DNA of 64,000 nucleotides from Hymenopellis radicata (Eukaryota > Basidiomycota > Agaricomycetes > Agaricales > Physalacriaceae). The stretch lies in assembly GCA_015501595.1 (NCBI GenBank), contig JADNRX010000035.1:186001-250000 (forward strand), in the 5' to 3' direction. The number at the start of each line of letters is the position of its first letter. The first letter of the stretch is position 1. This document shows, piece by piece, positions 8,680 through 60,109 of the stretch. Below the pieces are notes generated by a model. That model was not told where the DNA came from. It ran no database searches and saw only the letters and a program-made list of their open reading frames with translations. A program made the position numbers and the translations under genes.

Positions 8680-9010
8680 AGGTGTAGATTCGGAGACGAC
8701 GGACGAAGGCCTATTCACCCACCGAATCCTTCAAGTTGATTTCATTGGAAGCCTCAGCGTGCTGAACTGTACGCTATCGGTTCTCGTCAAAGTGCCGCAT
8801 AGATCTCCAGAAAAAGATCAGCTGCATATAGAATTCGTCAATGCCCCATCCGGTGTCGCCTTCTCAAAGGAAGCTTACATTTAACATTGCAGAGTGACAT
8901 GCACGATTGACGCAGGTCAGCGTTTCAGGATTGAGAACCTACTGTCGACAGATCGCACTCCGTACTCTTCGCCTCCTCCTCTCGTCCCTCGGGAGTGAAT
9001 TCGTGCATTT
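8680..9010 (+). pseudogene. Unidentified coding relic beside G1
   Basis: Translation on the + strand gives a long stretch (words VDFIGSLSVLN, LVKVPHRSPEK, EFVNAPSGVAF) followed by stops and a short piece near 8935-8990. The stretch around 8955-9060 resembles 28.53-28.66 kb in inverted orientation, the outer end of the inverted duplication. Function not recognised. Confidence 0.3.
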
Positions 9011-9068
9011 CCTTTTCCCAAACAACTCAAGGTACCCTATGTAACCAGAATCATACAAACACCTGAAA

Positions 9069-10649
9069 TCATTCTGGACTACCTGTAGAATCATAGGCGG
9101 CGAAGGCTACCGTTCCGACACTACTTCCCAAGTCACCGATTGTTCCTTGACTTCCACGAATCACCTGCTTCTTCGCCTGGGCACGGATATTCGTGATAAC
9201 TCGGCAAGCCAGCATGGCGTGGATAATCCGTATTAACCTACGGTCAGTAGCATGAACCTGTAAGTTCGATCATAGTAGTGGACTGAGGACTTACAGACCG
9301 AGCAAGCTAAGAAGGTCGGGCTGTTGAACCAGTTGGATTCTGCACAATGCCTAGAAGTACAGATAGATGACGCACGGCAACACTGCTGATCACAATTATG
9401 TTCGTAATGTTCAAGACTGAGGGATGATCAGCGCTCTGTATCGAGGGAAGGGAACGAGTTCTACCGGAGAGATAGAGATAGTACATGACGCCTGGAGTGC
9501 TTGGTTATCAGTGGTGGCTCCCGTTAGTGATAGGCGGAGACATACCATCCTTCAAGATAACGTTCAATAGCCGTGATGAACTGATTTCTCGTGCCTCACG
9601 AACTATCCCACTGATCATCAATCGAACACAATGCCAACCAGAGAACTTACACTGCTGGTAGGATTTAGCTACCATGAGTAGTAGCATGACTAGAGCGGGT
9701 GAGTACAGAGTGGTAGTATTCGAGGGTGATACTCGCCTCCTTCATACATCATCGAGGTTATAAAGTCCCACCGGAAAATCGGATTGGCGGCAGAGACAAG
9801 ACAGCCTTTAAGATCCGGAAGCGGGAGGATTAGGACTTGAGAGCCCGTTAGTAACTTCTCTTGGCCAACATTCATCACTCACATTGTATGGAGCTCAGAA
9901 AGATACCCATTACTGTGAAGACAGCGACGAAGTGCGCCAAAAAAAGAACCGGCATGCAAACTGTGAGAAAGCGATGCCGATTCCAGACGGCCCAAGTTCG
10001 AAGTGTGAGTATAACTAGTCGAATAATGAGATCACAGAGATGCCGAGAGTACGAGTATGCTTACCTTCAGCCAGCACAACGCCAGCAGTGGCCAACCCTG
10101 ATGTTACCGTGAATATAAGCAACATCGAACGATCGTGACGACACACATCCATCCATCTTGTATACGACTAGGCAGTTCTCTGCACTCATATTTGGTGTAA
10201 CATCCGCTACCAGATTATTAGAATGACACACACATTCGATGACTTGAGAAAACGTACTCCACAGGAACACACCCGCGGTTACAAAGGTGGAATACCGTGT
10301 GACGAGGTAGAGCAGCTTGGTTATAGTCCATTTGGAACCCCATATAAGATCCACCTCCTGCTCGAGTGTCAAGAGGTAGTCGAACACCTGAATTGACGTG
10401 GAATTAGGTGCCCCGATACAGCCAGTGTGAAGAACGGGGCATACGTAGAGTGCCGTAGCCGAAACTGTCGTAGATGAAGATTAGGTGGCAAGCATTTCCG
10501 TATCTCGTGGGATCGTACCATCAAAGTACTACAGGCAATGTGTTAGCACAGGGCAGTTCTGAGAGATCGAAATTATTCACGGTGGAAAGTCGCAGGTGCT
10601 GCAACGCCTCAAAGAGTGCAAGCGATTGGGCTTGGGACTGGGCATCCAT
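9069..10649 (-). CDS. DUF6533-type multi-pass membrane protein G1 (possibly inactivated)
   Basis: Predicted membrane protein of the DUF6533 family, common and multi-copy in agaricomycetes; function unknown. It starts at 10649. Exon 1 (23 codons) is followed by a 10-nt exon (TACTTTGATG), a 20-nt exon and an exon with FDYLLTLEQEVDLIWGSKW, the DUF6533 signature. Later exons give TM-like segments. The C-terminal exon reads MLACRVITNIRAQAKKQV and ends at 9069-9071. Exon order and splice sites match the paralogue G2 at 26.95-28.53 kb. I could not close the reading frame around the third span (about 10110-10200) or after the fifth, so lesions are possible. An LTR retrotransposon sits 16 bp upstream of the ATG and separates the gene from its ancestral promoter at 15.5-16 kb. 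Confidence 0.6.
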
Positions 10650-10660
10650 CGAGAGGGTGT

Positions 10661-10665
10661 GAATG
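10661..10665. repeat. Target-site duplication, left copy (GAATG)
   Basis: GAATG here and at 15510-15514 directly flank the LTR element. Paralogous arm B has a single copy (as CATTC) at the same site near 26.94 kb. Confidence 0.95.
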
Positions 10666-11315
10666 TGTAAGGGGGCATTTCCCGATATGGACATTATGTG
10701 CACGGACCTTATGTTGATCGCGTGTCCGCGATCCTTACTTACACTTACACTACGACTATTGGCTTTGTTTTCTATCCGTTCTTACGCTCGACGGGTCCCC
10801 GTTAGAGATCACCACGAGTCCTGACTCGAGTCGATTCGTGACTCATCAGGCGAGTACTCATGGGGGTCAAAAGCTGTTCATGACTCGTGCATGACTCGAG
10901 TCTCCCTGACTCACGAGTCGAGTCGAGTCGAGTATTTGACCCTGCGAGTCCGAGTTGATTCGCGAGTACTCTCCAAACTCATCTAGTATATTGCTGTAGT
11001 TAAACCTTATTTAAGCTATTTAGCAGGTATTTTCATTGATTCATGTGTTCATGCACGAGTCAACACGAGTCAGGACACAAGTCAGATATTCGCCTTAGGC
11101 TGTTCATGACTCTTGCCTAACTCGAGTCCCCCTGACTCACGAGTCGAGTCGAGTCGAGTATTTGACCCTGCGAGTCCGAGTTGATTCGCGAGTACTCTCC
11201 AGACTCATGCGACTCGTGGTGATCTCTAGTCCCCGTGGTCCCATTGGACTCAATTATATTGCTTTTCGTATTCTTTCGGACCCTCCGGATCTCGACAGTG
11301 TATCTACGGCTTACA
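10666..11315 (+). repeat. 5' LTR, interrupted by a MITE
   Basis: 216 bp of LTR split at 10802/11229 by a 426-bp insertion plus its 8-bp duplication. The LTR parts are identical to the 3' LTR. Confidence 0.93.
10803..11228. mobile_element. hAT-like MITE inside the 5' LTR
   Basis: Perfect 18-bp terminal inverted repeats: it begins TAGAGATCACCACGAGTC and ends with the exact reverse complement. It is flanked by the 8-bp duplication GTCCCCGT (10795-10802 and 11229-11236), present once in the 3' LTR. An 8-bp duplication and TAGAG ends are the hallmarks of hAT elements. The interior is packed with CGAGTC/GACTCG words, including triple runs at about 10917 and 11143. It also contains a direct duplication of roughly 110 bp (10874-10983 and 11098-11207). 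No coding capacity, so it needs transposase from elsewhere. It is absent from the 3' LTR, so it arrived after the retrotransposon. Confidence 0.92.
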
Positions 11316-11576
11316 CTTTTTTGAATACGCAACACGTTGCGTCCAACAGGGAGCGCAAAAAGCTTCGACAACAGGCCGAAGCTGCCGTGCTTGGAGACGA
11401 CAGGTCTCCATTCTATAGAGGTGTGTTAGACACCATTTGTTACTGCTGAAAAATTTTTTTAGCCCCCCACGGACGTCGGCGAGTCAGTCGCCGTCGCCCA
11501 TTCTCCACGTTGGTTGTCAAAGGACACCAGCGCTCCCCCATTTCCCCCACTCTCGTCGACGCTCTAGGCTACGACC

Positions 11577-12599
11577 ATGAGTGAAATCTCTCGCGCGTCG
11601 AAACAGTCGGCGCCGACTCAGGTGTCGAGGCAGTCGGCACCCTCACATGTGTCGCGACAGTCGGCACGCGTGCGAAAGGAACCTCCCGCCTTCACGGAGA
11701 GCGACCTGCCGCAGCGCACACGGCGACGACAGCCCCATACAGCTGGGGATGTCCCGCTACCCACTAGCTTGGACGACGCGGATGATGCTGGAGGTGCACA
11801 GGCCTTCCAGCCCCCGATCACGTCGACCGAGCCGGCGCGGTTCCAGTCGGGACTGCCGCCTTCTCCAACCCACATCGTCTCGAGCCCGCCGCCCAAGTTC
11901 ATAACTATGCGGCAGGTTCGAGGCGACTATCATCTATCGCCGGATAGCTGGTTTGCCGCGATGAACACGCCAACTCGTCGGTCAGACGATCCTGGGGCAG
12001 CACGAGCGAAAGCAAGTGTCAGCCCTCGGGCCATCGTATCTGACGGAGCGAAGGATGCTCCTGCGAACGTTGCCTGCTTTGAGGCCAGCGTACGTGAGGG
12101 GTGTCGGACACCTGCTTTGCCATCGCAGGTTACGACACACCTCGAGAGGTATGTCGAATCATTTCGCAGCCATGCTGCGCGAGGTGATTTGGCTGACCTA
12201 AATACCAGTTTTGATCAAACGATGGACGCGGTCCAGCAACATCTGTCTCTTCCTTGCCAGGATGATGAGTCGGACTCGCAGTACGCGCGTCGCATAGAGG
12301 TGATGGAACGTTCAAAGACGGAGAAGCCGGCGAGTCTTGTTCGCCCGGCGTCGTCATCGTCGACTGCTTCACGGTCTTCAGGTCGGACAGCGCGCTGTTC
12401 TGCTTTGTTGCGGGCGTGGTATCAGGACGTGTTTGAACGTGGTGTTTTACAAATGATTTATGACCGGCATATGTTGGTGTACAATACTACTACAGTACCC
12501 AAACAGGATGTGGTCAAGGGGGTTCCAAAATTAAAATTTTGTACACTGGGCTGTTTAATTTTTTTCGGACCTCGGCGTAGACCCTACCTACCTCTATGA
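11577..12599 (+). CDS. Retroelement ORF1 (gag-like, unrecognised)
   Basis: 340 residues, the first long frame after the 5' LTR, in the position of gag. It is hydrophilic and rich in Ser, Arg and Pro. The N-terminus repeats a SRQSAP-like unit (about residues 10-35). A mid-part holds a possible helical region (residues 205-250). There is no CCHC zinc knuckle. The last ~35 residues (YNTTTVPKQDVV onward) run into a T/A-rich stretch resembling 13340-13420, so the end may be truncated. Assigned by position only. Confidence 0.55.
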   Translation: MSEISRASKQSAPTQVSRQSAPSHVSRQSARVRKEPPAFTESDLPQRTRRRQPHTAGDVPLPTSLDDADDAGGAQAFQPPITSTEPARFQSGLPPSPTHIVSSPPPKFITMRQVRGDYHLSPDSWFAAMNTPTRRSDDPGAARAKASVSPRAIVSDGAKDAPANVACFEASVREGCRTPALPSQVTTHLERYVESFRSHAARGDLADLNTSFDQTMDAVQQHLSLPCQDDESDSQYARRIEVMERSKTEKPASLVRPASSSSTASRSSGRTARCSALLRAWYQDVFERGVLQMIYDRHMLVYNTTTVPKQDVVKGVPKLKFCTLGCLIFFGPRRRPYLPL

Positions 12600-12887
12600 C
12601 ATCATATATAGCACGTGATGCGCTATTTACCGTATTGGACCTTGGTACTAGCCCCTGATCTCACTTCCTTTCTCGCGCCATCATCCACGGCACTTTCCTT
12701 CTCTTGTGCCACAGCCGCCGCATGCCCAATGCAGCGGAATAAAGTCCATGCCTATGGAACTTCCCTTCTGGTCAGTAAGATTGTTATTTGATGTGAAGAT
12801 GGCACTGACCCATCCTATCTCACACCCACCTCGTGTGCACTTGGCTGCACTTTCTCTCTCTTCACCACATATCATTCACTGAGCATA

Positions 12888-13141
12888 CTGTACCGTTTCG
12901 ACCGGATATTCCCATATCGCATCACACGGGCCGGCGAAGCGAACCTATATATATCCCATATCGCGTCATGGAGCCTCGGAGCCAGGCACACCCTTCCAAA
13001 AGCGGAAATTTTCGGTCCCGCCTGCGGCGGGACAGTCCGAATCGGGTAATTCCCGCGCGCGTGCCTGGCAATGAAGCTGTTCGCTGTAAGTTCGCGGCAT
13101 ATCGCGTCACATGCCGCGAACCTACGGTCGAAACACTACAG
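12888..13141 (+). mobile_element. TA-flanked hairpin element E1 (254 bp)
   Basis: Inverted ends CTGTACCGTTTCGACCG and CGGTCGAAACACTACAG, flanked by TA on both sides (12886-12887, 13142-13143), as for mariner-like MITEs. Internally it has a central hairpin CCCGCC-TGC-GGCGGG (about 13019-13033), a second hairpin with an 11-bp stem (GTTCGCGGCAT, about 13090-13122), and three copies of CATATCGCRTCA at 12913, 12957 and 13098. Element E2 is its diverged relative in opposite orientation. Confidence 0.8.
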
Positions 13142-13310
13142 TATCCGCCACTGTCTTCCGCTTCAATGTCTGAGAAGGTCTACCAGTGTTCGTGCTCGCT
13201 GTACTCGTGAGCGAAGGTGGAGCAAGGGTAGTTACTATATTTGGACTGCTGTCATCTGCTACATGTTTTAGCATTGCCGCAGGCGCGGATATGTCTCATT
13301 ATAGTATAGA

Positions 13311-14930
13311 ATGACAGCTAATACTTCAATACACAATTTGGGACCCAAATATGACCCGAAATATTATAGTTTAAGAAAACTTTTTTGGGACCCCGAGGCT
13401 GACCCTACCTACCTGCCGGATGTATCGGACTTTAAGTCCGGAACCCCCTTGGATGTGGTCCTAGAAATAAAGAATGGTTACACAATGGGCTGTATTCCTT
13501 CTAAACCGACCATCCAAGTGAGAATTCCTGACCTGGATGATGTGCGGTGTGCGCCATTTCTTGAGCGATATCCGTCGCCTACCCGGGAGATTGAGGAGTG
13601 GGTGGGCAAGGATGAGCCAAGGCTGGAATACACTGATCCGGTTGTTCCTGTAGCCCCAGTGGTACAGACTCAGAAGGAGCCTGAGACCATTTTGGAGCAC
13701 AAGATAAGAAAGAGGGAACCAGCAGCAGAAGCAGCATGTGCCAAGCACAACCATGTGGCGCCATTAGACAATCGGGAGGTTGACGAGGCGCACATTGATG
13801 TGCAGACGCTAATGCCAGAGAAGCCGCCCGCACCACTATCAGACGTGTTCGGACGGCATGGCATATTCGAACAACGTGGTGCGTTGGTGGAGGATGATGT
13901 TGAGATCCCAGTATTGAAGGGGATCAAGACTCAAGTGCCGGAGCCGGTCCAGGGGCCGCGCCGCACGAGTATTCACATATTGGCTGGCAAGGAGACCGCC
14001 TCACCCAGGAAGACAAACATGTCTGAAGGGGCACCGAGACGTCAACCACTGCCGCCACCTCCAGACCCGGATCCAAGTGATGGTGGTACTGAGGGAAGTG
14101 ACGGCGAGGGTGCTGATCCTGAACAAGGATCAGTCAATCCAGACTGTGATATGCCTGGTCCTGGGGGTGGGATACCACCTCTGAGAGCAGGTAATGGAGA
14201 AGATGATGGTGATGGTCAAAGTGACCATTCCACGGTCACATACTTGCTTAGTTCTGAGAGAAACCGCCTCTTACACTTTTTTGAGCCTGACAAGCCTGTT
14301 ACAATTGAACATGGCTATGTGAAGGTCAAACAGTCTATGCCTACTCTACTAGAGAAGGAAGAGCTGCAGGAGATTGCCCAACAATATTCGGCAAGCATTC
14401 AACCAAAGAAGAAGCTGGAGGGTCTAGTCGTTCCAACAGAGCCAAGGCCCAGCCAGTCTATTCCTAGGAAGTACGCAATGTCAGATAAGAAGGGCAGGGA
14501 CGGGGCTTCTGCTGAGGGGGAGCGATATGCTCACCTCAAGGAGAAACTGCAGAACCAACAGTCCCCACCTCGGGTATTCAACCAAGGTTGGGAAGATCGT
14601 GCACCGCTCTTCGGGAAAACCGAGAGTGATGAATCAAGTGAATCTACACCTCCAGGGCTCAGTCAGCACTTGCCGGTCTTGCTGGGTCCTGAGGATGGGA
14701 TAACAATTGAAGATGTTGAAGAGATTGTGAATCGAGCGATGGCTATGGACATCGCCGACCTGCAGACAAAAATCTATAGAGTGAAGAGGGATATACTTGA
14801 ATGGCCAGCAAGTGGCCGGGCACTTTATCGATGGCACAAAGTGTTGATGCGCCGAAAGGATCCTGACGACAAGGCGCAACAAGCAAAGACCGAGGACGGA
14901 AGGATGTGGTGGTGGCAGACACTACTGTAG
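13311..14930 (+). CDS. Retroelement ORF2, 539 residues, unknown
   Basis: Long open frame with no recognised domain. The N-terminus (residues 1-90) has a DPEADPTYLPD motif. The middle is Pro/Asp/Gly-rich (PPPPDPDPSDGG near residue 250). The C-terminal third is charged with probable helices. Its stop TAG (14928-14930) lies inside element E2. If E2 and one TA are removed, the frame continues about 45 codons to a TGA abutting the purine tract before the 3' LTR. So the present protein appears truncated by the insertion. No RT, RNase H or integrase signature (no YxDD, no HHCC). Could be a structural or accessory protein of a non-autonomous element. Confidence 0.55.
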   Translation: MTANTSIHNLGPKYDPKYYSLRKLFWDPEADPTYLPDVSDFKSGTPLDVVLEIKNGYTMGCIPSKPTIQVRIPDLDDVRCAPFLERYPSPTREIEEWVGKDEPRLEYTDPVVPVAPVVQTQKEPETILEHKIRKREPAAEAACAKHNHVAPLDNREVDEAHIDVQTLMPEKPPAPLSDVFGRHGIFEQRGALVEDDVEIPVLKGIKTQVPEPVQGPRRTSIHILAGKETASPRKTNMSEGAPRRQPLPPPPDPDPSDGGTEGSDGEGADPEQGSVNPDCDMPGPGGGIPPLRAGNGEDDGDGQSDHSTVTYLLSSERNRLLHFFEPDKPVTIEHGYVKVKQSMPTLLEKEELQEIAQQYSASIQPKKKLEGLVVPTEPRPSQSIPRKYAMSDKKGRDGASAEGERYAHLKEKLQNQQSPPRVFNQGWEDRAPLFGKTESDESSESTPPGLSQHLPVLLGPEDGITIEDVEEIVNRAMAMDIADLQTKIYRVKRDILEWPASGRALYRWHKVLMRRKDPDDKAQQAKTEDGRMWWWQTLL

Positions 14931-15168
14931 CGTTTCGACCGTAACTTCACAGCCTGTGACCCGTTATGGTCTGAAGTTACAGCGAACAGCTTCACAGACC
15001 CTTAAATTGCCTTATTTGGACAGTCCCGCCTATGGCGGGACCTGAAATTTCCTTATTTGGAGGCTTGTGCCTGGCCAAAGTGGTCCGTGACCCGTTATGG
15101 TGTATATATAGCTTCACTTCAAAGACCTCCGTGACCCGTGATGTGAATTTGCGGTTGAAACGCTACAG
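14925..15168 (-). mobile_element. TA-flanked hairpin element E2 (244 bp)
   Basis: Ends CTGTAGCGTTTCGACCG and CGGTTGAAACGCTACAG with TA duplications (14923-14924, 15169-15170). On the minus strand it aligns with E1 throughout: TATATATA box, CCCGCC-ATA-GGCGGG hairpin, GAAGCTGTTCGCTGTAA word. A second hairpin has stem GTAACTTCA (about 14941-14980). Three copies of CCGTGACCCGTTATG-type motifs lie at 14953, 15085 and 15129. It truncates ORF2. Confidence 0.8.
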
Positions 15169-15293
15169 TACTACTGCATCCGGGGATCTGGGGGGTGCGT
15201 CAGGAAATGCACCCCTCGAACCGTCATCCACCGAGTCGGAATAGTGTCTTTGGGTCAAGACCTTCGTCGATGACTTGGTCTTGAGGGGGAGAA

Positions 15294-15509
15294 TGTAAGG
15301 GGGCATTTCCCGATATGGACATTATGTGCACGGACCTTATGTTGATCGCGTGTCCGCGATCCTTACTTACACTTACACTACGACTATTGGCTTTGTTTTC
15401 TATCCGTTCTTACGCTCGACGGGTCCCCGTGGTCCCATTGGACTCAATTATATTGCTTTTCGTATTCTTTCGGACCCTCCGGATCTCGACAGTGTATCTA
15501 CGGCTTACA
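15294..15509 (+). repeat. 3' LTR (216 bp, intact)
   Basis: TGTAAG...CTTACA, preceded by the purine tract and followed by the GAATG duplication at 15510-15514. Identical to the 5' LTR apart from the MITE. Confidence 0.95.
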
Positions 15510-15990
15510 GAATGTTTGATGGGCCACAAAAACTGAGCCGTTCCTTTAAGGTGCGGACGGTGCATTCGGGGGGCTGCGATGTTGATGTATGAGCATCTGA
15601 AGAGATGGGGAAGCGCTAACTGTGTCCGAATGAGTCAGAATGATGATGGGACGTTTCGATACTAATGCGATCACATACTTATATCAACATGACAACATAG
15701 GGTAATGTTAATCCGAAAATAAGACCACAAGAAAAGAACGGACTGGAAGTCACAAGACGGCGGGAGAAAGACTGGTAAGATGTCGGTCTGCAAGAGCAAG
15801 ACCGAAAATATTCGACCAAGACTCGGAAAGATGGGCCGCGCAAGACCAAGACTGAAAAGACGCCTTTGCCGGTTACCTGATGTCGAATACAGTCCACGTA
15901 GTCGACCACCATCTGTGAGGGCATTCAATCTGATCAATTGGGATACACAAATAGAAAGCATTCTGAAGCGCCTGATTGCCGCGGCAGTGT
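15510..15990 (-). promoter_or_regulatory. Displaced upstream region of G1
   Basis: Reverse-complement similarity to 26.46-26.94 kb, immediately upstream of paralogue G2. It includes degenerate ~30-bp tandem units rich in GGTCTTG (here CAAGACC, 15780-15870). The retrotransposon now separates it from G1 by 4.8 kb. Confidence 0.7.
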
Positions 15991-16137
15991 GAGAGAAGAT
16001 ATCAAAGAGCGATTTCAGAAATCACGTTGCATTGAGAGATGATTAGCACAACACTGAGATTATCGAACATCAAGTAGATGACCGCGGATTCATCAGGTGG
16101 AGATAGAGCAATGGGACGCTTCCTGCAGGAGGCCTCA

Positions 16138-16683
16138 GGGAAGAGGGCTCTGCTCCCGCGGTTGCTTCTGCGCCTGATGATATGTTGTCAAACCTGTGTA
16201 GATTGGAATGCTATATGGAGGCCGGACATACCGTGATATGCCAATGCCGCGTTAAAATTGAACGTGCCATTGCTCAGGAGCGGAAGGTAGGTGTAGTGCG
16301 GCACGGCGGTGTCGTCGGGTATTGTATTGGGGTAGCTGTTGAATGGGCTAGAGTAACCGCGATGCCAGCGTAGTGGAATCCCGCCGGTATGGGCTGAATA
16401 TTGAAGCCTGTGAATTGTCCGACTACTCAGTTCCGATGTCCAAGAGGAACAAAGAGCCACGTACTTCCATCGCTGGTACACTGGTTCCCGAAAGCCTCGC
16501 ATATCTGGCACGGGCTCTGCTTGACGACTCCAGCCACACAAAAAGTCACGCGAATCAGCAGCGGATTCCATTCGTCTAGACGGAGATAACCCGCACCCAC
16601 GAGAACTCCGGGTTTGAGCAGACTGCGTGCTGTTGTGCCGGAGCACCAAGACTGAGCGCAGCGAGAACCAAGAGAGCACTCAT
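16138..16683 (-). pseudogene. Surface-protein relic T2
   Basis: Close copy of T1. It keeps the start codon at 16683 and a signal-peptide-like start. About ten bases are lost just after the first acceptor (frameshift). An internal deletion removes most of the Cys-rich exon 3, joining sequence near 16341-16350. It ends inside the Ser-rich stalk near 16138, so the membrane span and tail are missing. Not able to encode the family protein. Confidence 0.8.
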
Positions 16684-16739
16684 GGTGGTACTCGGGGAAG
16701 AGATCAATCACTCCATCGCATGATGAAGTGCCTGCTTTA

Positions 16740-17200
16740 AAGGTGATGCATTGTCTAGAAGCACTGACGACACCGGTGTAGCAGTGGATGATCATCTGCC
16801 GATGGCGAAGTAGATGAGTATAAAAGGAATGCTACATGAGGCCCAGGTAGAGCAGGAAGTAAGCTAGGCGCTGGCCAAGAATACGCTGCGGTAACGAGAG
16901 GCTCATTAAGAATCAGCACAGCATATGGAAGATCAAATCACTTGCCAAACAGATGCACATATGTCCTCCTTGCGATTTTCCATCAGGGGAAGCTGATAAT
17001 CCGTGCGCGGCGAGCCTTGTCTCCCCGCCGGGATTCAGCCATGATTCCACGGAGCCAGGACGACAGAAAAACGACCACTCAACTTTCATGATTCCCAGCC
17101 ACGTGTTTTCCGTCGTTCTTGCCGTTTTTGCTGATGTAGGATTCTCAGTCTATATGCCTCACGAGACGGAGTGCCGTTGACTGCTTTGAAAGAGCCATCA
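16740..17200. repeat. Inverted-duplication spacer, arm A
   Basis: Matches 24.5-24.99 kb in reverse orientation: shared tracts around CATATGGAAGATCAA, GATTCCCAGCCACGTG and CTTTGAAAGAGCCATCACGG. It lies between T2 and F3 as it does between T3 and F4. No coding sequence seen. Confidence 0.75.
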
Positions 17201-17288
17201 CGGTCGGACGAACGTGTTACCGATCACGTGACTGATGGTTCGATTGCTCAGGGTTGCTGACACCTTTGCTTTGCATTCCATCCTCGAC

Positions 17289-18704
17289 ATGGTCCTCCTA
17301 CCTGACCTTCCTCCGGAAGTGCTCGCCCTCATACTCGGTAATTTGCATGACGAGAATGTCTCTCTCACACGCGTCTCCTTGACTGGAAATACGGCGCTGA
17401 GGACCATCGCCCAAAACCTCATGTTACGCGACTTGCGTATCTGCCTCAACTTCCCAATCGACAGTAGACATCCCTCCTATTCTAATTTCAGACGTATATG
17501 CAAGGAGCCCGCGCTCTGCAACTCCGTGCGCTCCGTCACGTTCCAATGTCGCTCAGAGCCGGGCAATCTCGACCTCCTGCCAGTACTAGACCTCCTTCGG
17601 AAATACTTTGTGAAGCTGAAGAGCGTGACGCATGTTCGCATTTACTGCAGCGCTCATGTTGTCAATCGACGTTATACCTGCGTTACCCCCACTGTGTTCA
17701 TTTGGGCGCTACGCCTTCCGGGCCTCCGGACGTTGGTCGTTGAGGATTGCCTCAGCATAAGCCACCGCGTTATTCAAGGCTCCCGCCGCTCCCATGGCCT
17801 CCGCGTGCTGGTCCTTAACGCCTCTGCTTCACATGTGCCATTGGACTTCCAAGACCCTCCCCCTCACTCCCTTCTCGAGTACACTCCCGCGGTGAGCGTG
17901 ATAGAGATAAGGGGCGCAGAGTTGAAAGACGACCTGCCGATGGGATATCAATCCTGTCTGTCGGGTGTCTTCAGGTGGATAGTTCCGGGAGCTGAAAACA
18001 ACGTTGACTCCCGACGGCCGCGGAGGATACATTTCGTGTGCGACTGTCAGTCTTCTTCGTGTTGCTATCTTGATGTAATTGTTCGTCTCTCCGTAAGCCT
18101 TCACACTTTGTTCTAGGTGTGATTTCTGACTCTCCCCCCGAAAGACTGCCCTTGAATCATTCAAAATGCTGGAAGAGCTTGTCTTCGACAAGGTCATCAA
18201 ACGGGACGCACTGGAAGCGGCGCGCCGCTCGTTTACAGACCTTTCTGTGGCGGGTCGTGGGATTCTCAAGAGACTGTCGCTACTGTTCGGGATATCAGAC
18301 TATGGCAAGGAAACGCCGTACATCTGCGAAGCCCTGCAGCGCCTATCCGATCTAGAAGAAGTGACTCTTGAGTGCGATGGTACTGATGTAAGCGAAGCAT
18401 CTCTTGCTGAATCGGTGTTAACTATGAATCCCCGTAGGAGGCTCTACTCGCCTGCATTGCCGCGCATCCGTCGCTGCGATGTGTCTACTTCCATGTTGCA
18501 CCGTCGATTGACCTGGATATACAGGACCTTGCGCAGCGGATTTCCCAGCAGGCGCGCCAACTCACTCTCGTCGCATGGGTGCCTGCATATGTAATGGCAC
18601 AGATGAATGCAGATTGTACGATTGAGATGAAGGTATACGAGGAGCCGAGATGGTTACAATTTGGCGGTGAGGATACAAAGTGGTGGGAGGAATGTCGATT
18701 CTGA
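17289..18704 (+). CDS. F-box-like protein F3 (intact)
   Basis: Probable substrate adaptor of the fungal F-box/LRR-like type; partner and target unknown. Exons 17289-18092, 18145-18387 and 18438-18704 (introns 52 and 50 nt, both GTAAGC donors) close to 437 residues. The N-terminus has an F-box-like segment, LPPEVLALILGNLHDENVSL. Repeated leucine-rich stretches follow (DLLPVLDLLRKYF, LRLPGLRTLVV, ALQRLSDLEEVTLEC). The protein ends WWEECRF. An ATG at 17235 is in frame, but the intervening DNA looks like a 5'-leader intron (acceptor TTGCTCAG), so I chose 17289. F4 in arm B has identical exon lengths (804, 243, 267). Confidence 0.85.
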
Positions 18705-19577: not shown

Positions 19578-19883
19578 CTCTGAGTCCTTTCAGCCCTTTT
19601 GCTATCTCTGGTGACTGGTCAGATATTGTTTTGCAGCTTCAGACAGTAGACTGTTGAACACCTCGAGAACCGATAATATCTATGCTTTCGAATCATCACA
19701 TATTTGTGAATGTGCGCCACATGTTTCTGACGCCCGCATGATGATGGTAGATATATGTGGCCTTTCCTCGACAATAGATGCGTAAGATACCCTCTGTACG
19801 CATGAAGGTACATTACGATTACATCCCGTAGTGTACATATATACACTGCTCGGCGTCGCCAATAAAGGATACCCGCGAGCAAT
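19578..19883. repeat. Body of a tRNA-headed dispersed repeat
   Basis: Shares ordered words with 35826-36020 (GACTGGTC, AGATATTGTTT, CTCGAGAACCGATA, TGCGCCACA, GTTTCTGAC). Both follow a tRNA-Ala-like head. Confidence 0.5.
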
Positions 19884-21573
19884 TCAGTTGTCCCCATGCT
19901 CCTCATATCCCACCTCACTCTCCACCTCACCAGGGATATCCTCGAGCTACAAGAAACCGGCTCATCAGAAACAGAAAACGGTCAACCGGGAAACCAAACA
20001 CACCTGATCCAGCTCCTCATAACACTCCCCAATAATCTTGATCGCCCGCCTCATATCCTCCTCCTCAATCACCAGCGGAGGGGCAAACCGCACGATATTA
20101 ATGTGCGTCGGTTTCGCGAGAACACCCCGGCTCTTCAGCAGCAAACAGAACTGCCACGCACTCCGCTTCTTGTCGCTCTCTTGGAATACCACAGCATTCA
20201 GCAGACCGCGTCCGCGCACAGTCATCCCCAGCGCCGCCACCTCCGTTCTGAAGATCTCGCCCAGTCTCTGCGCGCGCTCCGCCAGGTTCTCGTCCCGAAG
20301 CACGTCCAGCGCGGCAATCGCTACCGCGCACCCCAGCGGATTCCCACCATACGTCGACCCGTGCTCGCCTGGCTTGATGCACAACATCACCGCCTTGTCT
20401 GCTAGGACAGCCGAGACTGGGTACAAACCACCGCTCAGGGCTTTACCCAAGAGAACAATGTCCGGTCGTACACCGTCCCACTCGGATGCGAGCATCTTTC
20501 CTGTCCGACAAAGCCCAGTCTGAATCTCGTCGCAGATGAAGAGGACGTTGTGCGCCTTGCACAGCTCCGCCACACGTGCGAGGTAGCCTTCTGGGGGAAC
20601 GACGATCCCTGCCTCGCCCTGAATAGGTTCTACAAGGAACGCAGCGACCTTCTCTCCATAAAGCGCCAGCGCACGCTCAACGTCCTCCGCCACCCCGTAC
20701 CGAATGGTCTTCGTCTCCTTTCCGTCAACAAACGTCGGCCCCACGCCCGCTAGGTACGGCCCGAATCCCGCCCGACAGTCTGGGTCTGTGCTGAGACTGA
20801 CGACGCCTAGTGTGCGTCCGTGAAAGTTGCCTTCCACGCTAAGTATGATGGCCGAGTTTTCTGGGACGCCTTTGACCATGTACGCCCACTTGCGGGAGAG
20901 CTTGAGGGCGGTCTCGACGGCTTCGGCGCCGGTGTTCATGGGGAGGACCATGTCGTAGCCGAGGGTGGCGGTGATTTTTTGGGCAAAGGAGGGAAAGACG
21001 GAGTTGTAGAAGGCGCGGGAGGAGAGCGACAGCCGTTGGGCTTGGGTGACGAGGGCGGAGACGATGCGCGGGTGGCAGTGGCCTTGGTTTACGGCTCTGT
21101 GAATTTGTTTAGTTTGATTTGAGATGGATGGAGGGTGGGACGCACGAATAAGCAGATAACATATCGATATATTCTTTCCCCTCGGGATCCCAGACCTTGG
21201 CGCCCAGCGCGCGGTCAAAGACGACGGGGAGCGGGTGGTAGCTGTAAAATGCGATATGAGCATGCAGGTTGAATTGGGGAAAGGACGAGATGCAACAAGG
21301 GGTGGGAATTGAGTCGAAGGCTATAATCGCGCAGAGGGAATTATGATAGGCTCGGGGTCATGCTGCCGTGTAGGCGCTCGTATGCTGTGCGGGATGATGT
21401 GATACAATAAAGTATAGACGCCGTGTGGGCGCCTGTGGACGCCTGCTTCGCTGTCGTGTGCCGCCATCGGGGCGTCGTCGAAAAAAAGTGGCTACTCACT
21501 TGTGTGCACCAAACTCGTGTTCCATGCGGATCACGTCTGCGCTCGACAGATGGACTCCGTTTGTGTTCGCCAT
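19884..21573 (-). CDS. CAR2: Ornithine aminotransferase
   Basis: PLP enzyme transferring the delta-amino group of ornithine to 2-oxoglutarate, giving glutamate-5-semialdehyde (arginine catabolism to proline/glutamate); cytosolic in yeast. Exons 21573-21500, 21241-21146, 21096-20004 and 19946-19884 close to 441 residues, the usual size. Landmarks: [62 protein letters not shown], and LLGKALSGG with the PLP lysine, followed by [11 protein letters not shown]. Intron 1 is unusually long (258 nt); the others are 49 and 57 nt. The last exon adds an acidic tail ([12 protein letters not shown]). A TATAAAAGG box lies 125 bp upstream of the ATG. It is the only intact gene between the two arms of the inverted duplication. 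Confidence 0.95.
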
Positions 21574-21696: not shown

Positions 21697-21705
21697 CCTT
21701 TTATA
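21697..21705 (-). promoter_or_regulatory. TATA box of ornithine aminotransferase
   Basis: TATAAAAGG on the minus strand, about 125 bp before the start codon at 21573. Confidence 0.6.
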
Positions 21706-23010
21706 CGGGGCTTATGGCATGCTCCGCCCGGCTCCCCACCCAAAGCACATCTCCCTTGGCAATCATGACGAAGTGGATGGAGGACGTGGACGGCGGAATT
21801 TGCTAATTGCGAATTACAATTGTCCAGGGCCGGGGGATCGTCGGGTCCTGCCAATCGGGGGCGCGGGGTTGGGAAGCGGGCCGAGTTCGAAATACCTAAA
21901 AGCTGTTTCCGTCGCTGGTGGGAAAGGTTGGACGCTGGAGAGAAGGAGGCGAAGACACAGAGAATGTATGTAGCCTTCGAGTTGGGACCTGGGCCTGGGC
22001 GTCTATTCCCGGCGCTTAACCGGGCGCTTATCGACCCAGAGATCTGATGGCTCACTGACACTCCTTCTTATACTGTTTCATCTTGCATCTAGTCTACTCT
22101 CGTTCGACACTTCTAAATACGTATAGAGGCAAGAAAATTACTCGGCCTAGTCCACCGTCTCGAGGACCTGAAAATACTGCACTCGACCTCATGGTACATG
22201 ACCTTCAAGACAATCATAATTGACTTCGAACGTAGGTGGACACCATGTCCAGGTGGTACTCACTGCCGTGCCGGGTTCATCTTTCACGGGTCAAAGGTGA
22301 GTCCTGATGTTTGGTCTGGTCCTCGGCAAGAATCAGTCCTGGGGCGACGGCAGCGTTCAGCATGGGTAGCTTGATCAAGTTCGTGTCCCTACTACCTTTA
22401 AATGTCACTCGATAACTCTCGACCACTCTCAGTTTTCTTCCGCTCGTACACAAGCACATGCCCAGGGAAACAATCTTGTTGCCCCGAACTATTGTCAATG
22501 CATCGATTTCGCCACGTTAAGCCGGCGGTGAAGTGGAGTTCTGGCTTTAGTATTGTGCGTCGTACAAAGTCCATACTCTCGGCGACGTTCTTCATTCGTA
22601 TGTCTTTCTCGTTCATCACCGTTCGTCTGTTATTCACGTTGGATGACGCCTCGTTGAAACCTTCGAGATGTCGGTTCCAACTTCTTAGTTGGTCAGCGTT
22701 ACCTTTTCGAACTGTCCGGTAGAGATTCGAGGTATGCGCAGCAAGAATTGAAAAGGTTTCCGCTACATGGCTTCCCCCTCCGTTTCATAGCGGAAGCGGA
22801 TCATTCAGGTCATTGGCAGCTCAATAAACGTACTATCGCTATCAGCTTCGGGTTCACTCTGTTATGCGAGCTGCCTAAAACCGGTACCCGCCTGGTAATA
22901 AAAAACCATGTGCGCCTGCATGATCGGGAATTGAAAGAAACCACCGGCATCGTAATAAACCAACTAAGTACACAAACGAAGGGCAGTCAAACACATCCAT
23001 TCGACACGTA
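21706..23010. other. Intergenic, rest of the unique spacer
   Basis: No gene recognised. A minus frame at 22398-22637 lacks a known motif. A short tract, 22855-22890, nearly repeats part of the acylaminoacyl-peptidase gene near 63.42 kb (see findings). Confidence 0.45.
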
Positions 23011-24431
23011 CTAGAATCGAGATTCCTCCCACCACTTCGTATCCTCACCGCCAAACTGTAACCATCTCGGCTCCTCGTATTCCTTCATCTCAATCGTACG
23101 ATCTGCATTCATCTGTGCCATTACATCTACAGGCACCCATGCGACGAGAGTGAGTTGGCGCGCCTGCTGGGCAATCCGCTGCGCGAGGTCCTGTATCTCT
23201 GGATCACTCAACGGTGCATCATGGAAGTAGACACATCGCAGCGAGGGATGTGCCGCAATGCAGGCTAGTAGATCCTCCTAGGGGAATTCGTGGTTAACAC
23301 CGAGTCAGCCCGACGCGTAATTGCACTGTACTTACATCAGTACCATCACACTCAAGAGTCACTTCTTCTAGATTGGATAGGCGCTGCAGGGCTTCGCAGA
23401 TGTACGGTGTTTCCTTGTCATAGCCTGATATCCCGAAGTTTAGAGACAGTCTCTTGAGAACTCCACGACCCGCCAAAGAAAGCTCTGTAAATGAGTGGTG
23501 CGCCGCTTCCAATGGGCCCCATTCCATGTCTTTGTCGAAGACAAGCTCTTCGAGCACTTTGAACGATTTAAGGGCAGTCTTTCGGGTGAGTTAGGAATCA
23601 CACCTAGAACAAAGTGTGGGGGCTTACGCAGAGACGAGCGATTACAGGTCGATAGAGACAATAATCAGCCTCACATTCGCACACGAGATGCATCCTACGC
23701 GGCTGCCGGGAGTCAAGGTTGTTTTCGACTCCCGGAACTATCCACTTGAAGACACCCGACAGACAGGATTCATATCCCATCGGCAGGTTGTCTTTAAACT
23801 CTACACCCATCATCTCTATCACGCTGACTGCGGGAGTGTACTTGAGAAGGGAGTGAGGGGGAGGGTCTTGGGAGTAAAATGGCACACGTTTGGAAGTAGA
23901 GGCGTTGAGAATGAGCGTGCGGAGGCTGCGGCAACGGAGCGAGTCTGGAATAACGTGGTGGTTTATAATGCAATTGTCAACGACCAACGTCCGGAGGGCC
24001 GGAAGGCGCAGAACCGAAATGAGCAAAGTAGGGGTAAGGCAGGTGCCATGTCGATCGGGACAATGAGCAATGCAGCGAATGTGAACATGCGTCACGCTCG
24101 TTAATTTCAGAAAGTATTTCCGAAGGAGGTCCAGTAGTGGCAGTAGGTCGAGATTGTCCAACTCGGAGCGACATTTGAACGTGACGGAGCGCACGGCGTT
24201 GCGCAGCGCGTGCGTGTTGCATATACGTCTGAAAGTAGGATAGAAGCGATGCCCACTGTCAATTGGGAGCTTCAAGCAGATACGCAGGTCGCGAAGCATG
24301 AGGTTTTGGGCAATGGCCGTCAGCGCCCTGTTTCCGGCCAAGGAGACGCTTGTGAGAGAGACATTCTCGTCATGCAAGTGGCCGAGTGTAAGGGTGAGCA
24401 CCTCCACAGGTAGGTCAATTAGGAGCACCAT
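23011..24431 (-). CDS. F-box-like protein F4 (intact paralogue of F3)
   Basis: Exons 24431-23628, 23578-23336 and 23277-23011 close to 437 residues. Lengths 804, 243 and 267 are the same as F3; introns are 49 and 58 nt. It has the same F-box-like start (MVLLIDLPVEVLTLTLGHLH), Leu-rich middle and C-terminus ending WWEESRF. An upstream in-frame ATG at 24506 exists but lies in the probable leader-intron region. Similarity to F3 continues into the 5' flank and stops at the stop codon (TAG here, TGA in F3). Both copies are open and keep their splice sites, which suggests both are under some constraint. Likely a ubiquitin-ligase adaptor by family, target unknown. Confidence 0.85.
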
Positions 24432-24499
24432 GTCGAGGATGGAGTGCAAAGCAAAGGAGTCGCAGTAACCCCTGAACAATCGAAACCGAGCCGCCAAAT

Positions 24500-24990
24500 C
24501 AGTCATGTGATCGGTAACACGTTCGTCCTACCGTGATGGCTCTTTCAAAGCAGTCAACGGCACTCCGTCTTGTAAACCATATACACTTAGAATCGTACAT
24601 CAGCGAAACCAGCAAGAACGACGGAAAACACGTGGCCGGGAATCATGAAAGTTGAGTGGTCGTTTTTCTGTCGTCCCCGTGGAATCATGGCTGAATTCCT
24701 CGGCGGGAACACAAACTCATCGCGCAGAGATTATCAGCTTCGCATGATGGTAAATCGCAAGGAGGACAGATGTGCATCTATTTGGCAAGTGGCTTGATCT
24801 TCCATATGCTGTGCTGATTCTTAATGAAGCCTCTCGCTACCACAGCGTATTCTTAGCGTACCAATACTCTTGACTTGTCTGGGGACAATGTACCATATGC
24901 TTCCTCCGCCTCCCTTCGCCATCAGCAGATGATCACTCACTCCCACACCCGTGTCTTCTCCATCTTGCATGGATCTTTAGCATACGAACA
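24500..24990. repeat. Inverted-duplication spacer, arm B
   Basis: Reverse-orientation counterpart of 16.74-17.20 kb, upstream of F4 and of T3. Confidence 0.75.
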
Positions 24991-25122
24991 TGCAGTTTCA
25001 AGAACCTCCGTTATCATCATACCTCCCACACTCTTCATACAGCGCTTCTAGACAATGCATCGCCTTTAAGGCACGCACTTCATTATGCGATGGAGTGATT
25101 GATCTCTTCCCCGAGTACCGCC

Positions 25123-25355
25123 ATGACTGCTCCCTTGGTTCTCGCTGCGCTCAGTCTGGGTGCCTTGGCACAAAAGCACGCCGTCTGTTCCAACTCGGAG
25201 TTCTCGGGTTATCTCTGTCTAGACGAATGGAATCAGCTGTGATTCACGCTACTTTTTGTGAGGCTGCTGTAGCCTTCCAACTCCCTCAAGCAGAGCCCGT
25301 GCCAGATAGGCGAGGCTCTCGGGAACAAGTGTACCAGCAAGCCGCTGCATCTTGA
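25123..25355 (+). pseudogene. Surface-protein relic T3
   Basis: Third copy of the T module. The start codon and signal-peptide-like N-terminus are kept (25123 on). Eight bases are lost at the end of exon 1, removing the TGG codon and the GTGCGG donor that T1 and T2 retain. Similarity ends after the piece matching 'GNQCTS' of T1 at about 25340. Not functional as this family. Confidence 0.8.
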
Positions 25356-26430
25356 CTCACATACGTGCGTTGGGAACCCCCGCTGAGCAGGATACGTCGA
25401 ACAAGATGTACTCCTCTTAACGCGTCATCGGTGAATGTATTGTCGCTAACTCAATGGCAGAACGGGACAACGTACTCGTGAAGGGGAGAGGCGCACGGCC
25501 GCGTCCGGCGGAGTGGAATACCACATTCGCATTTCCAAGAGAAGGAACGTAATTATCTTGTCATACAGAAAGTGTCAGCGACATACACGATGGCGTCTTC
25601 GGATGGAGAGAACGAAAGGAATCCAAAAGACTTTATGACTAAGTATGATATAAGGCGCGAGGAAGTTTTCAAGCGCGCACCATCGGCATAGAATTCTCCA
25701 TGGTCATCGCTGACATCCTCGGTTAGGATCTGTCGGAACCCGAAAAGAAGATCGTCTTCGTAGTTGTGCGTTTGATGTCACGAACGTGGTCGGCTATGCT
25801 GTACGTGACTTCTAGACCTTGAATTGATATTGAGCAAATTTCCAGAACAGATGTGCGAGGAGGATACCTTTGTACCGCGCATCCGTCTCTACAAGGAAGT
25901 GTGCTGCGGTGGGGGGACAGGAATGGAGGAGGACTTTGGACATCGACATAATCCACTTTTGGGCAGAAACATAAAATGCTCCGTAGTGCGACGCTTCGTT
26001 GTCCGTCTGCAAGGAGTTGGTATTGAAGGAACGCCGGCGGCGAACTGGGCCGGCATTTACAGCCAATCATGTGATTCGATCAGCGGGCGAATAGGGGCGT
26101 ACAGTCTTTTGCTTCTGGCGTTCACCGTGGTAAGACGAAGTCGGTACTGCTCTCTCTCTAGCTAAGCGCGCTCGGAGGATTCTTCCCTGGGCGTGGACGC
26201 AAAGGCGGCGGGCACGCGGTCAGGGATCTTGTCGCCTGATCCATTCGCCATCCACCGCTGCTAGCAGGGCTTCATTGGTTGATGTTGATGTCTTCTCATC
26301 TGTAAATGCGGTACGGTCACATACGGCCTTGGAATCAACCCTCTCTCTCCGACTTAGTGAATTGCCTCCCACAGGCAGCGCCCCATTGTTAGAGCTCCAT
26401 GATGAAACCGCGGTCATCTTCGATATCTCG
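25356..26430. other. Intergenic, nothing recognised
   Basis: Between T3 and the G2 upstream region. Overlapping small frames on both strands (25.7-26.1 kb, 26.2-26.4 kb) without motifs. Confidence 0.45.
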
Positions 26431-26459
26431 TGTTGGAGATCGTCTCTCTGATATCTTTT

Positions 26460-26948
26460 GTCGCACTTCGGAGGTCATCAGGCCTCATTGTGTCCTGCGT
26501 GTGGTACAAATGCTTGGTCTACTTATTCGTGTGACCACATGGAATGTATTCGACATCAGGAAAACAGCAAAGGCGTCATTTCAGTCTTGGTCTTGCGCGG
26601 CCCATCTTTCCGAGTCTTGGTCTTGCGGCTCGGATCTTTTCGGTCTTGCTCTTGCAGACCGACATGTTTCCAGTCTTTCTCTTGCCGTCTTGTGGCTTCC
26701 CACCCGTTCTTTTTCTGGGCGTCTTATTTTCGGATTCACATTACCGTATGTTGATATATGTGATCGCATTGGTGTCGATATGTCCCATCAGCGTTCAGAC
26801 GCGGTTAGCGCTTCCCCATCTCTTCGGATGATCATACATCAACGTCCTAGCTTCTCTGATCCACAGATACAGAACGGAACAGTACACACCGTCCGCACCT
26901 TAAAGGAGCGGCTCAGTATTCGTTGCCCATCAAACATTCACACCCTCG
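26460..26948 (+). promoter_or_regulatory. G2 upstream region with ~30-bp tandem units
   Basis: Conserved with 15.51-15.99 kb. Four degenerate units built on GTCTTGGTCTTGC lie at about 26577-26700. The site CATTC near 26.94 kb is the unoccupied counterpart of the retrotransposon target in arm A. A 196-residue open frame over this region is not supported as a protein. Confidence 0.6.
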
Positions 26949-28533
26949 ATGGATGCCCAGTCCCAATCCCAACTGCTTGCACTCTTTGAGGCGTTGCAGC
27001 ACCAGCGACTTTCCACCGTGATTACTGTTCGATCTCTCTAAAGTGCCCTGTGCTAACAGAATGACTGTAGTACTTTGATGGTACGACCCAACGAGATACG
27101 GAAACACCTGCCAACTAATCTTAATCTACAACACAGTTTCGGCTACCGCACTCTACGTATGCCCCGTTCTTTACACTGGCTGTATCGGTGTACCTAATTG
27201 GAGGTCAATTCAGGTGTTCGACTACCTCCTGACACTCGAGCAGGAGGTGGAGCTGATATGGGGTTCAGAATGGACTATAACCAAGCTGCTCTACCTCGTC
27301 ACACGGTATGCCCCCTTTGTAAATGCGTGTGTGCTCCTTTGGCGTACGCTTTCTCAAGTCATCAAATGTGTGTGTCATCTAATAATCTGGTAGCGCAAGT
27401 TACACCAAATATGAGTGAAGAGAACTGCCTACTCGCATATAGGATGGATGGATGTGTGTTATCACAATCATTCGATGTTGCTTCTATTCACGGTAACACC
27501 AGGGATGGCCACTGCAGGCATTATGCTGGCTGAAGGTACCCACACTCGTCCTCTCGGCATCTTCGTGACCTCATTATCCGAGTAGTTATACTCACAGTCC
27601 GAACTTGGGCCGTCTGGAATCGGCATCGCTTTCTCACAGTTTGCATGCCGGCTCTTTTTTTAGCATCCTCCGTCGCTGCCTTCACAGTAATGGGTATCTT
27701 CCTGAGCTCCCTGCAATGTGAGTGATGAATGTTGGCCAAGAGAAGTTGCTAACAGGTTTTCAAGTCCTAATCCTCCCGCTTCCGGATCTTAAGGGCTGTC
27801 TTCTGTCTGCCGCCAATCCGATTTTTCGGTGGGACTTTATAACCTACATGATATATGAAGTAGGCGAGTATCACTGCTGCATGAATACTGCCACTCTGTA
27901 CTCACCCGCTCTAGTCATGCTACTACTCATGGTAGTTAAATCCTACCAGCAATGTAAGTTCTCTCGTCGGCATTGTGTTCGATCGATGACCCGTGGGGTA
28001 GTTCGGGAGGCACGAATCGGTTCGTCACAGCTATTAAACATTGTCTTGAAGGATGGTATGTCTCCGCCTATCATTAATGAGAGCCGCAACTGATCAAGCG
28101 CTCCAGGCGTCATGTACTATATCTATCTCTCTGGTATGGCTCGTTCCCTTCAATCGATTGATACAGAGCGGTGATCATTCCTCAGTCTTGAACATTACAA
28201 ACGTGATTTTGATAAGCAGTCTTGCAGTACGTCCTTTCCGTTTACCTTTATGCATCGTGTAGAAGCCAACTTGTTCTACAGCCTGACCTTCTTGGCTTGC
28301 TCGCTCTGTAAGTACTCAGTCCACTACCATGATCGAACTGACAGGTTCATCCTACTGATCGTAGGTTAGAACGTGTTGTCCACGCAATGCTGGCTTGCCG
28401 AGTCATCACGAATATCCGTGCCCAGGCGAAGAAGCAGGTGATTGATGGAAGTAAAAGAACAATCGGTGACTTGGGAACTAGTGTCGGAACGGTAGCTTTC
28501 GTCGCGCACGATTCTGCAGGCAGTCTGGAATGA
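26949..28533 (+). CDS. DUF6533-type multi-pass membrane protein G2
   Basis: Paralogue of G1 with its own promoter intact. Exons that I can fix: 26949-27017, 27071-27080 (10 nt), 27137-27156 (20 nt) and 27214-27343, which carries FDYLLTLEQEVELIWGSEW, the DUF6533 signature. Later come 27598-27717 (RTWAVWNRHRFL, membrane-like) and 27756 onward (LPDLKGCLLSAANPIF). The last exon contains LERVVHAMLACRVITNI and ends at 28531-28533. The region around 27394-27535 and the junction at about 27859 did not close in frame in my hands. Either my splice choices are wrong or the gene has lesions. Function of the family is unknown; it is not an assigned receptor. Confidence 0.6.
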
Positions 28534-28979
28534 TTTCGGGTGTTTGTATGATTCCGCTGACATACGGTACCTTGAGTTGCAATAGACGGGAATTCACGAA
28601 TTCAGTACACGAGCGCTGAATCAAGTCCGCGAAGAGGACACGAAGAGTACAGAGCGCGCTCGCTCTAAGTTGCACATTACTTAGAGCCAAATTTACTAAA
28701 CGGACGTCTTGGGACTCTGCAAGGCCAACAACAGCTGTGTCATGACGGGGGGATCAATAAGACGAGACTCAGGCAAGATTCAGGCCCTGCAAGCAGGAGA
28801 GTACCGAAGTATTTCGCTAGAGATTGACGATATCTACTTGAGACGGCATGCGCCATCAACTACCAGGGAGCTCCCGAGCCGAGATGCTACATTTTCAGTA
28901 GTACTCTTGCAGCGAGAACGAACAGTGCCAGGATCCCAGATGTCGGCATATACTTGAGGCAGGATGGCTGGATGAGGGA
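28534..28979. other. Outer end of arm B and intergenic DNA
   Basis: 28534-28660 resembles 8.95-9.07 kb in reverse. Beyond that nothing is recognised. Confidence 0.45.
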
Positions 28980-60104: not shown

Positions 60105-60109
60105 CTCCG

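What the first reader, a model, noticed from the sequence alone, without database searches (positions are those of the whole stretch)
8950..28660. Large inverted duplication around ornithine aminotransferase
Seen: order G(-)-T(-)-F(+) in arm A is mirrored by F(-)-T(+)-G(+) in arm B. The two F genes have identical exon lengths and similarity ends exactly at their stop codons (18701/23013). The T and G copies and the intervening spacers also match. A ~4.3-kb unique spacer holds a single-copy ornithine aminotransferase. Inference: a modular family cassette was copied in inverted orientation around an essential-type gene, a layout that could promote inversion of the spacer or gene conversion.
Basis: partly seen in the sequence, partly recalled or inferred. 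Interest (0 to 1): 0.75.

Follow-up and report, generated by a model that had tools for sequence, protein, structure and literature searches.

The report
Old mirrored gene cassette around OAT
In a mushroom genome, an old and decaying copy of a three-gene cassette sits in mirror image on the other side of an ordinary metabolic gene; both haplotypes seen carry it the same way round, so it looks like an everyday duplication rather than a genetic switch.

Summary
The mirrored layout is real: G(-)-T(-)-F(+) at 9023-18749 is matched by F(-)-T(+)-G(+) at 22963-28579 around one ornithine aminotransferase (OAT) gene. The window is contig C685 of a 75.5-Mb assembly, identified as Hymenopellis radicata by protein names and contig lengths. 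Contig C756, the other haplotype, has both arms and the spacer in the same orientation: no inversion in 2 of 2 haplotypes. The arms are old (main blocks 81-88% identical, longest exact match 52 bp, F dS about 0.2) and broken: a young LTR element sits in arm A only and T is truncated in arm B. The edge "at the stop codons" does not hold: against C756, similarity runs hundreds of bases further. F shows no inter-arm conversion since the haplotypes split (175 arm-specific, 0 haplotype-specific, 1 crossed site). G is a dispersed DUF6533 family, at least 12 copies in both haplotypes together; G_A is closer to a copy on C851 than to its mirror partner. The outer arm-B block holds non-sister copies in the two haplotypes. 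Verdict: an ordinary diverged inverted duplication in a turnover-prone cluster.

The parts
9023..10666 (-). G_A: DUF6533 gene copy of arm A (NCBI model P0130)
   Evidence: Inverted match to 28579-26934, 87.9%; DUF6533 E=1.2e-13 on a hand-joined model, 1.1e-16 on P0130; P0130 placed here
10666..15509 (+). Young LTR element in arm A: 216-bp LTRs (10666-11315 with a nested insert; 15294-15509), flanked by GAATG at 10661-10665 and 15510-15514; strand follows its two ORFs
   Evidence: LTRs identical over the 213 bases compared apart from the nested insert and its 8-bp duplication; empty site in C756
15510..15903 (.). Spacer of arm A next to G_A
   Evidence: Inverted match to 26939-26533 in two pieces
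16139..16766 (-). T_A: T copy of arm A
   Evidence: Inverted match 16472-16766/25338-25040 (84.1%); direct match 16139-16744 to 4020-4801
17289..18704 (+). F_A: orphan F-box-like/LRR-like gene, 437 aa (P0122)
   Evidence: Splice model equals P0122; start; inverted match 84.7%
19884..21573 (-). Ornithine aminotransferase (P0001) in the spacer
   Evidence: tblastn of P0001 and start/stop positions; Aminotran_3 E=4.4e-119; one further copy in the assembly, on C756
23011..24431 (-). F_B: mirror copy of F, 437-aa core (P0121; the NCBI model starts 25 aa upstream)
   Evidence: Splice model equals the last 437 aa of P0121; start
25040..25433 (+). T_B: truncated T copy of arm B
   Evidence: Inverted matches to 16766-16472 (84.1%), 4800-4521 (89.8%) and 3187-3099 (83.9%)
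25575..26533 (.). Spacer upstream of G_B, closer to C768/C685:252 kb than to its C756 allele
   Evidence: 87.4% to C768a, 86.1% to C685:252 kb, 81.4% to C756, over 25575-26900
26934..28579 (+). G_B: DUF6533 gene copy of arm B (NCBI model P0132)
   Evidence: Inverted match to 10666-9023; DUF6533 E=4.7e-14 on P0132; placed
4020..5166 (-). T': third T copy, outside arm A
   Evidence: Direct match to 16139-16744 (95% and 90%), inverted match to 25338-24743 (90% and 82%)
7559..8562 (.). Two F fragments in inverted orientation outside arm A (7559-7959 -, 8191-8562 +)
   Evidence: Matches to F_A and F_B, 84-89%

Best explanation
This is an old inverted segmental duplication of a lineage-restricted F-T-G cassette, lying on both sides of a bystander OAT gene. 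Shown here: both haplotype contigs carry A-OAT-B in the same order and orientation; the main aligned blocks are 81-88% identical; an LTR element, deletions and a broken F_A allele are eroding the arms; and G belongs to a dispersed family. Inferred: F already stood next to OAT before Hymenopellis and Mucidula split; the cassette was then copied in inverted orientation during a burst of G-cassette copying; and the copies now undergo birth-and-death turnover with occasional exchange or replacement between non-allelic copies. F probably encodes an F-box/LRR adaptor and G a membrane protein (both inferred). The pair has no shown joint function, and OAT is a passenger.
For: Mirrored matches; same arrangement and spacer orientation on C756; arm-specific F sites 175 against 0 haplotype-specific and 1 crossed; F dS 0.19-0.22 between arms against about 0.03 between F_B alleles; LTR element with empty site in C756; F_A allele of C756 broken by 1-bp and 23-bp deletions; at least 12 G copies in the assembly; M. 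mucida F P0124 and OAT P0003 on contigs of the same length, 40,119 bp; A and B F proteins separated from the other four family members with 100/100 support.
Against: G_A is more similar to C851 (90.5%) than to G_B (88.7%), and window G_B and C756 G_B are not sisters, so G may not have been duplicated together with F as one unit; the spacer trees agree that outer arm B is mixed. Contig-length equality for Mucidula is indirect. Only one strain was available. The F tree is unrooted, so older duplication followed by homogenisation is not excluded.
Confidence: 0.8

Rival explanations
1. Invertible spacer: the arms recombine and flip the OAT segment.
For: Inverted arms of about 5 kb around a 4.3-kb spacer.
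Against: Same orientation in 2 of 2 haplotypes; longest exact inter-arm match 52 bp; an LTR element and gaps interrupt the arms.
Confidence: 0.04
2. Ongoing gene conversion between the mirror arms keeps them alike.
For: 14 derived G sites shared by arm A and C756 G_B, all in alignment columns 1200-1599; C756 G_B joins A with 99 bootstrap; the stretch upstream of F has only 1 arm-specific site in columns 200-299.
Against: F: 0 haplotype-specific and 1 crossed site against 175 arm-specific. Within the G tract A and C756 G_B still differ, and the spacer of window G_B points to the C685:252 kb/C768 copy, not to arm A.
Confidence: 0.1
3. Assembly artefact: a false palindrome from joining haplotypes or reads.
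For: The window contig does switch haplotype at about 3.75-4.75 kb, within the T' repeat, and C756 has small indels that look like assembly errors.
Against: The arms differ by 12-19% in the main blocks, and C756 carries the same A-OAT-B arrangement.
Confidence: 0.02
4. Independent insertions: F was duplicated around OAT, while G cassettes landed on either side separately as members of a dispersed family.
For: G_A is closer to C851 than to G_B; G copies elsewhere carry the upstream spacer but no T or full F.
Against: Order G-T-F is mirrored on both sides, and C756 shows A/B similarity outside G as well.
Confidence: 0.2

Closest known systems
Inverted segmental duplication in a fast-turnover, lineage-specific fungal gene cluster
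   Same: Diverged mirrored copies, further copies near by and elsewhere, pseudogenised allele, transposon insertion
   Different: An unrelated housekeeping gene (OAT) sits in the spacer; the outer arm B differs between haplotypes as much as paralogues do
DUF6533 (PF20151) family of Agaricomycetes
   Same: G copies match it above cut-off
   Different: The subfamily found by the search is 9 H. radicata and 1 Mucidula mucida protein (10 hits among 2482 candidates); function unknown
F-box/LRR substrate adaptors (e.g. TIR1, COI1, D3, Skp2)
   Same: Weak F-box-like signal at the N-terminus of 3 of 6 members (P0122, P0124, P0125); the predicted fold's matches are LRR and F-box/LRR proteins
   Different: All Pfam scores are below cut-off and F_B (P0121) has none; the model is of low confidence (mean pLDDT 57); SKP1 binding not testable here

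Membership tests
Inverted segmental duplication | Two copies of the same multi-gene stretch in opposite orientation | tested here: met
   seen again within C756
Inverted segmental duplication | The two copies are each other's closest relatives | tested here: inconclusive
   F: no other full copy outside this locus in the assembly. G: G_A is closer to C851 than to G_B
Invertible DNA switch | Both orientations of the spacer occur | tested here: not met
   Same orientation in 2 of 2 haplotypes; no other strain available
Concerted evolution by inter-arm gene conversion | Copies within a haplotype share changes absent from the other haplotype | tested here: not met
   F: 0 such sites, 1 crossed, 175 arm-specific. 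Not tested in this way for T
DUF6533 (PF20151) | Profile match above Pfam cut-off | tested here: met
   51.3 bits on a hand-joined G_A model; 61.1 (P0130) and 52.6 (P0132) against 24.1
F-box/LRR protein | F-box profile match above cut-off | tested here: not met
   Best 16.3 bits against 24.3; none for P0121, P0123, P0126
F-box/LRR protein | LRR-like solenoid after an N-terminal F-box | tested here: inconclusive
   Low-confidence model matches LRR proteins, 17 at E up to 0.001, with TM-scores of about 0.2-0.5
LTR retrotransposon (insert in arm A) | Two LTRs, target-site duplication, empty site | tested here: met
LTR retrotransposon (insert in arm A) | gag/pol coding region | tested here: inconclusive
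   Two ORFs gave no Pfam match above cut-off; other frames not scanned, so it may be non-autonomous

The most novel reading that the evidence does not exclude
The outer part of arm B (about 24.5-32.5 kb) is a divergent haplotype block (83-94% identity in the 500-bp bins that align, with long unaligned gaps, against mostly 92-99% elsewhere in 4.6-43 kb) in which the same allelic position holds different cassette copies, brought in by exchange with other members of the cluster. Such a block could be a diversity-generating or recognition locus kept by balancing selection.
Probability: 0.08. Interest if true: 0.55.

Novelty: new member of a known kind. Interest (0 to 1): 0.22.

Why it matters
It shows how a rapidly turning-over, lineage-restricted gene cluster can wrap around a conserved housekeeping gene, and it warns that a sharp duplication edge seen in one haplotype may be a later loss. 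If the divergent arm-B block were kept by selection, the locus would be a candidate for allele-diversity studies in H. radicata.

Tried and rejected
Rejected: a sharp duplication edge at the stop codons; spacer inversion in the two haplotypes at hand; F gene conversion between the arms since the haplotypes split; an assembly palindrome. A subtelomeric location found no support: no run of TTAGGG/CCCTAA in the six contig ends looked at (300-600 bases each; the telomere unit is recalled). dS of OAT alleles was attempted, but the C756 exon does not read through in one frame, so no value was obtained. The T tree has weak inner support (60-70%) and rests partly on a poor alignment. The hand-joined T model had no Pfam match. 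A simple gene-model search gave inconsistent G models, so G was followed exon by exon. The 1-bp deletion in the F_A allele of C756 could be an assembly error, since C756 also has small indels in OAT; the 23-bp deletion alone would still shift the frame. Paper searches: Hymenopellis radicata + genome (13 papers, 12 listed), DUF6533 (2), F-box + Agaricomycetes + gene family expansion + lineage-specific (2), inverted duplication + fungal genome + basidiomycete (3), Hymenopellis radicata + gene duplication (0). Only listings and abstract beginnings were seen, except passages of PMC8480192, which names H. radicata IJFM A160 as a sequenced strain; that this assembly is that strain is my inference.
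Full report
What is there. Self-comparison of the window gives inverted matches between 9.0-18.7 kb and 23.0-28.6 kb: G 9023-10666/28579-26934 at 87.9%, a spacer 15510-15903/26939-26533 in two pieces, T 16472-16766/25338-25040 at 84.1%, and F 16877-18749/24854-22963 at 84.7%. With the LTR insert left out, 4374 of 4884 bases of arm A and 4425 of 5617 of arm B are covered; the three main blocks are 82-86% identical with gaps counted, and one 58-bp piece is 81%. The longest exact inter-arm match is 52 bp; for comparison, G_A and G_B match the G copy on C851 exactly over 64 and 62 bp.

Genome and haplotypes. The window is C685:186001-250000 of a 75.5-Mb, 1405-contig assembly. The OAT protein is 99% identical over 85% of its query to an ornithine aminotransferase of Hymenopellis radicata on a contig of 275,686 bp, the length of C685. 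Another H. radicata OAT model (P0112) sits on a contig of 45,588 bp, the length of C756. C756 is collinear with window 1-48650, antiparallel, with identity near 100% at both ends and lower between. It has A, OAT and B in the same order and orientation. C683 matches window 1-8163; site patterns show the window following C756 up to about 3.75 kb and C683 from about 4.75 kb, with a mixed stretch between in which 19 sites differ from both. The window is thus a phase-switched contig. The finding begins to the right of the switch; beyond 8163 C683 gives no further check of phase.

Arm A insert. An LTR element occupies 10666-15509, flanked by GAATG; C756 has the empty site. Its LTRs, 216 bp each, are identical over the 213 bases compared, except for a nested insert of about 427 bp with an 8-bp duplication in the 5' LTR. 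Two ORFs inside (11577-12599, 13311-14930) gave no Pfam match above cut-off.

F. Both copies encode 437-aa proteins with identical exon 1 and 2 lengths. The protein search scored the 7995 candidates that share most words and 6 matched: 2 H. radicata, 3 Mucidula mucida and 1 unnamed. In a tree of 7 rows (these 6 and the C756 F_B; the broken C756 F_A left out) the H. radicata A and B proteins are separated from the other four with 100/100 support, which fits duplication after the split from Mucidula, or later homogenisation; the tree is unrooted. M. mucida P0124 and OAT P0003 are on contigs of the same length, 40,119 bp, so F probably stood beside OAT earlier. Between window A and B, dN is 0.14-0.15 and dS 0.19-0.22; between F_B alleles, dS is about 0.03. 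The F_A allele of C756 carries a 1-bp and a 23-bp deletion and four in-frame stops when read with the window's splice sites. Four-way site patterns: 175 arm-specific, 0 haplotype-specific, 1 crossed, 86 single-copy changes and 9 other, beside 1390 invariant. The arm-specific sites are not even: columns 200-299, upstream of the gene, have 1, with 15 single-copy changes, so there the four copies look equally far apart. Three of six family members show a sub-threshold F-box-like signal. The predicted fold (mean pLDDT 57, pTM 0.64) matches LRR proteins including TIR1, COI1, D3 and Skp2 with low TM-scores.

Inner edge. In the window the A and B flanks align only about 45 bp beyond the stops. Window A against C756 B aligns over about 316 bp (score 97; maximum of 100 shuffles 29), and within C756 the flanks align for about 430-440 bp (score 227, including about 30 coding bases; maximum of 100 shuffles 28). 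The sharp edge is therefore best read as a later loss in the window's arm-B flank.

G. G copies are DUF6533 genes. The genome search gave 13 long matches (E at most 1.7e-238) among 40, which make 12 copies over both haplotypes because the two at C685:261 kb and 269 kb are complementary parts of one interrupted copy; the tool calls its counts lower bounds. I put 11 of these 12 into the tree and left out the interrupted one. The two G_A alleles group together (100); C756 G_B joins A (99); window G_B falls elsewhere with weak support. G_A is 97.4% identical to its allele, 90.5% to C851, 90.3% to C756 G_B and 88.7% to window G_B; the two G_B alleles are 88.0% identical. Polarised with three outgroup copies, 14 derived sites are shared by A and C756 G_B, all in columns 1200-1599; 4 are shared by the two G_B alleles and 3 by A and window G_B. 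In the spacer upstream of G_B, the window copy is 87.4% identical to C768a and 86.1% to C685:252 kb, but 81.4% to its own allele and 81.2% to C851, while the C756 copy groups with C851 (100; 5 sequences). The outer arm B is therefore not simply allelic.

T. There are three T copies in the window. C756 T_B is 94-95% identical to the T' copies, and about 89% to T_A in the BLAST match; the 76-77% of the multiple alignment includes badly aligned stretches. In the columns present in window T_B, C756 T_B is 96.6-97.4% identical to T' and 92.3% to window T_B. The identification of T as a secreted or membrane protein rests on reading the translations and on recalled motifs, not on a family match.

Wider cluster. 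C685 carries four G loci with orientations -, +, +, - in window sense, all four with NCBI models. C851 keeps an F 3' fragment and a spacer beside its G, but with the F fragment on the same strand as G, unlike in the arms. The mirrored pair is one part of a small, mixed-orientation cluster.

Interpretation. The best reading is an old inverted cassette duplication around OAT, decaying in a turnover-prone cluster; the inversion-switch and F-conversion ideas are not supported. It remains open whether G arrived with F or separately, and why the outer arm-B block is so divergent between haplotypes.

Noticed in passing
window 3750-4750: The contig switches haplotype here, inside the T' repeat: C756-like to the left, C683-like to the right, with 19 sites that differ from both.
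   Followed up: yes
window 10803-11228: Nested insert of about 427 bp in the 5' LTR with terminal inverted repeats and an 8-bp duplication (MITE-like, hAT-like by recall); a 97% copy lies in T_B of C756.
   Followed up: partly
window 51753-53816 and 59836-61286: A second inverted pair, 86-92% identical, about 6 kb apart; no long ORF recognised by eye, no family search made.
   Followed up: partly
window 24500-32500: Block of low identity between the haplotypes, with long unaligned gaps, between more similar flanks.
   Followed up: partly
C685:261490-270184 (beyond the window): A G copy split by about 7 kb of inserted sequence, inverted relative to the G copy at 252 kb; C768 also has two G copies in inverted orientation.
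   Followed up: partly
window 19503-19578, 32099-32173, 35751-35826: Three tRNA-Ala(AGC) genes, near-identical; one lies between F_A and OAT.
   Followed up: no
window 30446-30907 and 31482-31918: Direct repeat, 84% identical, to the right of arm B.
   Followed up: no
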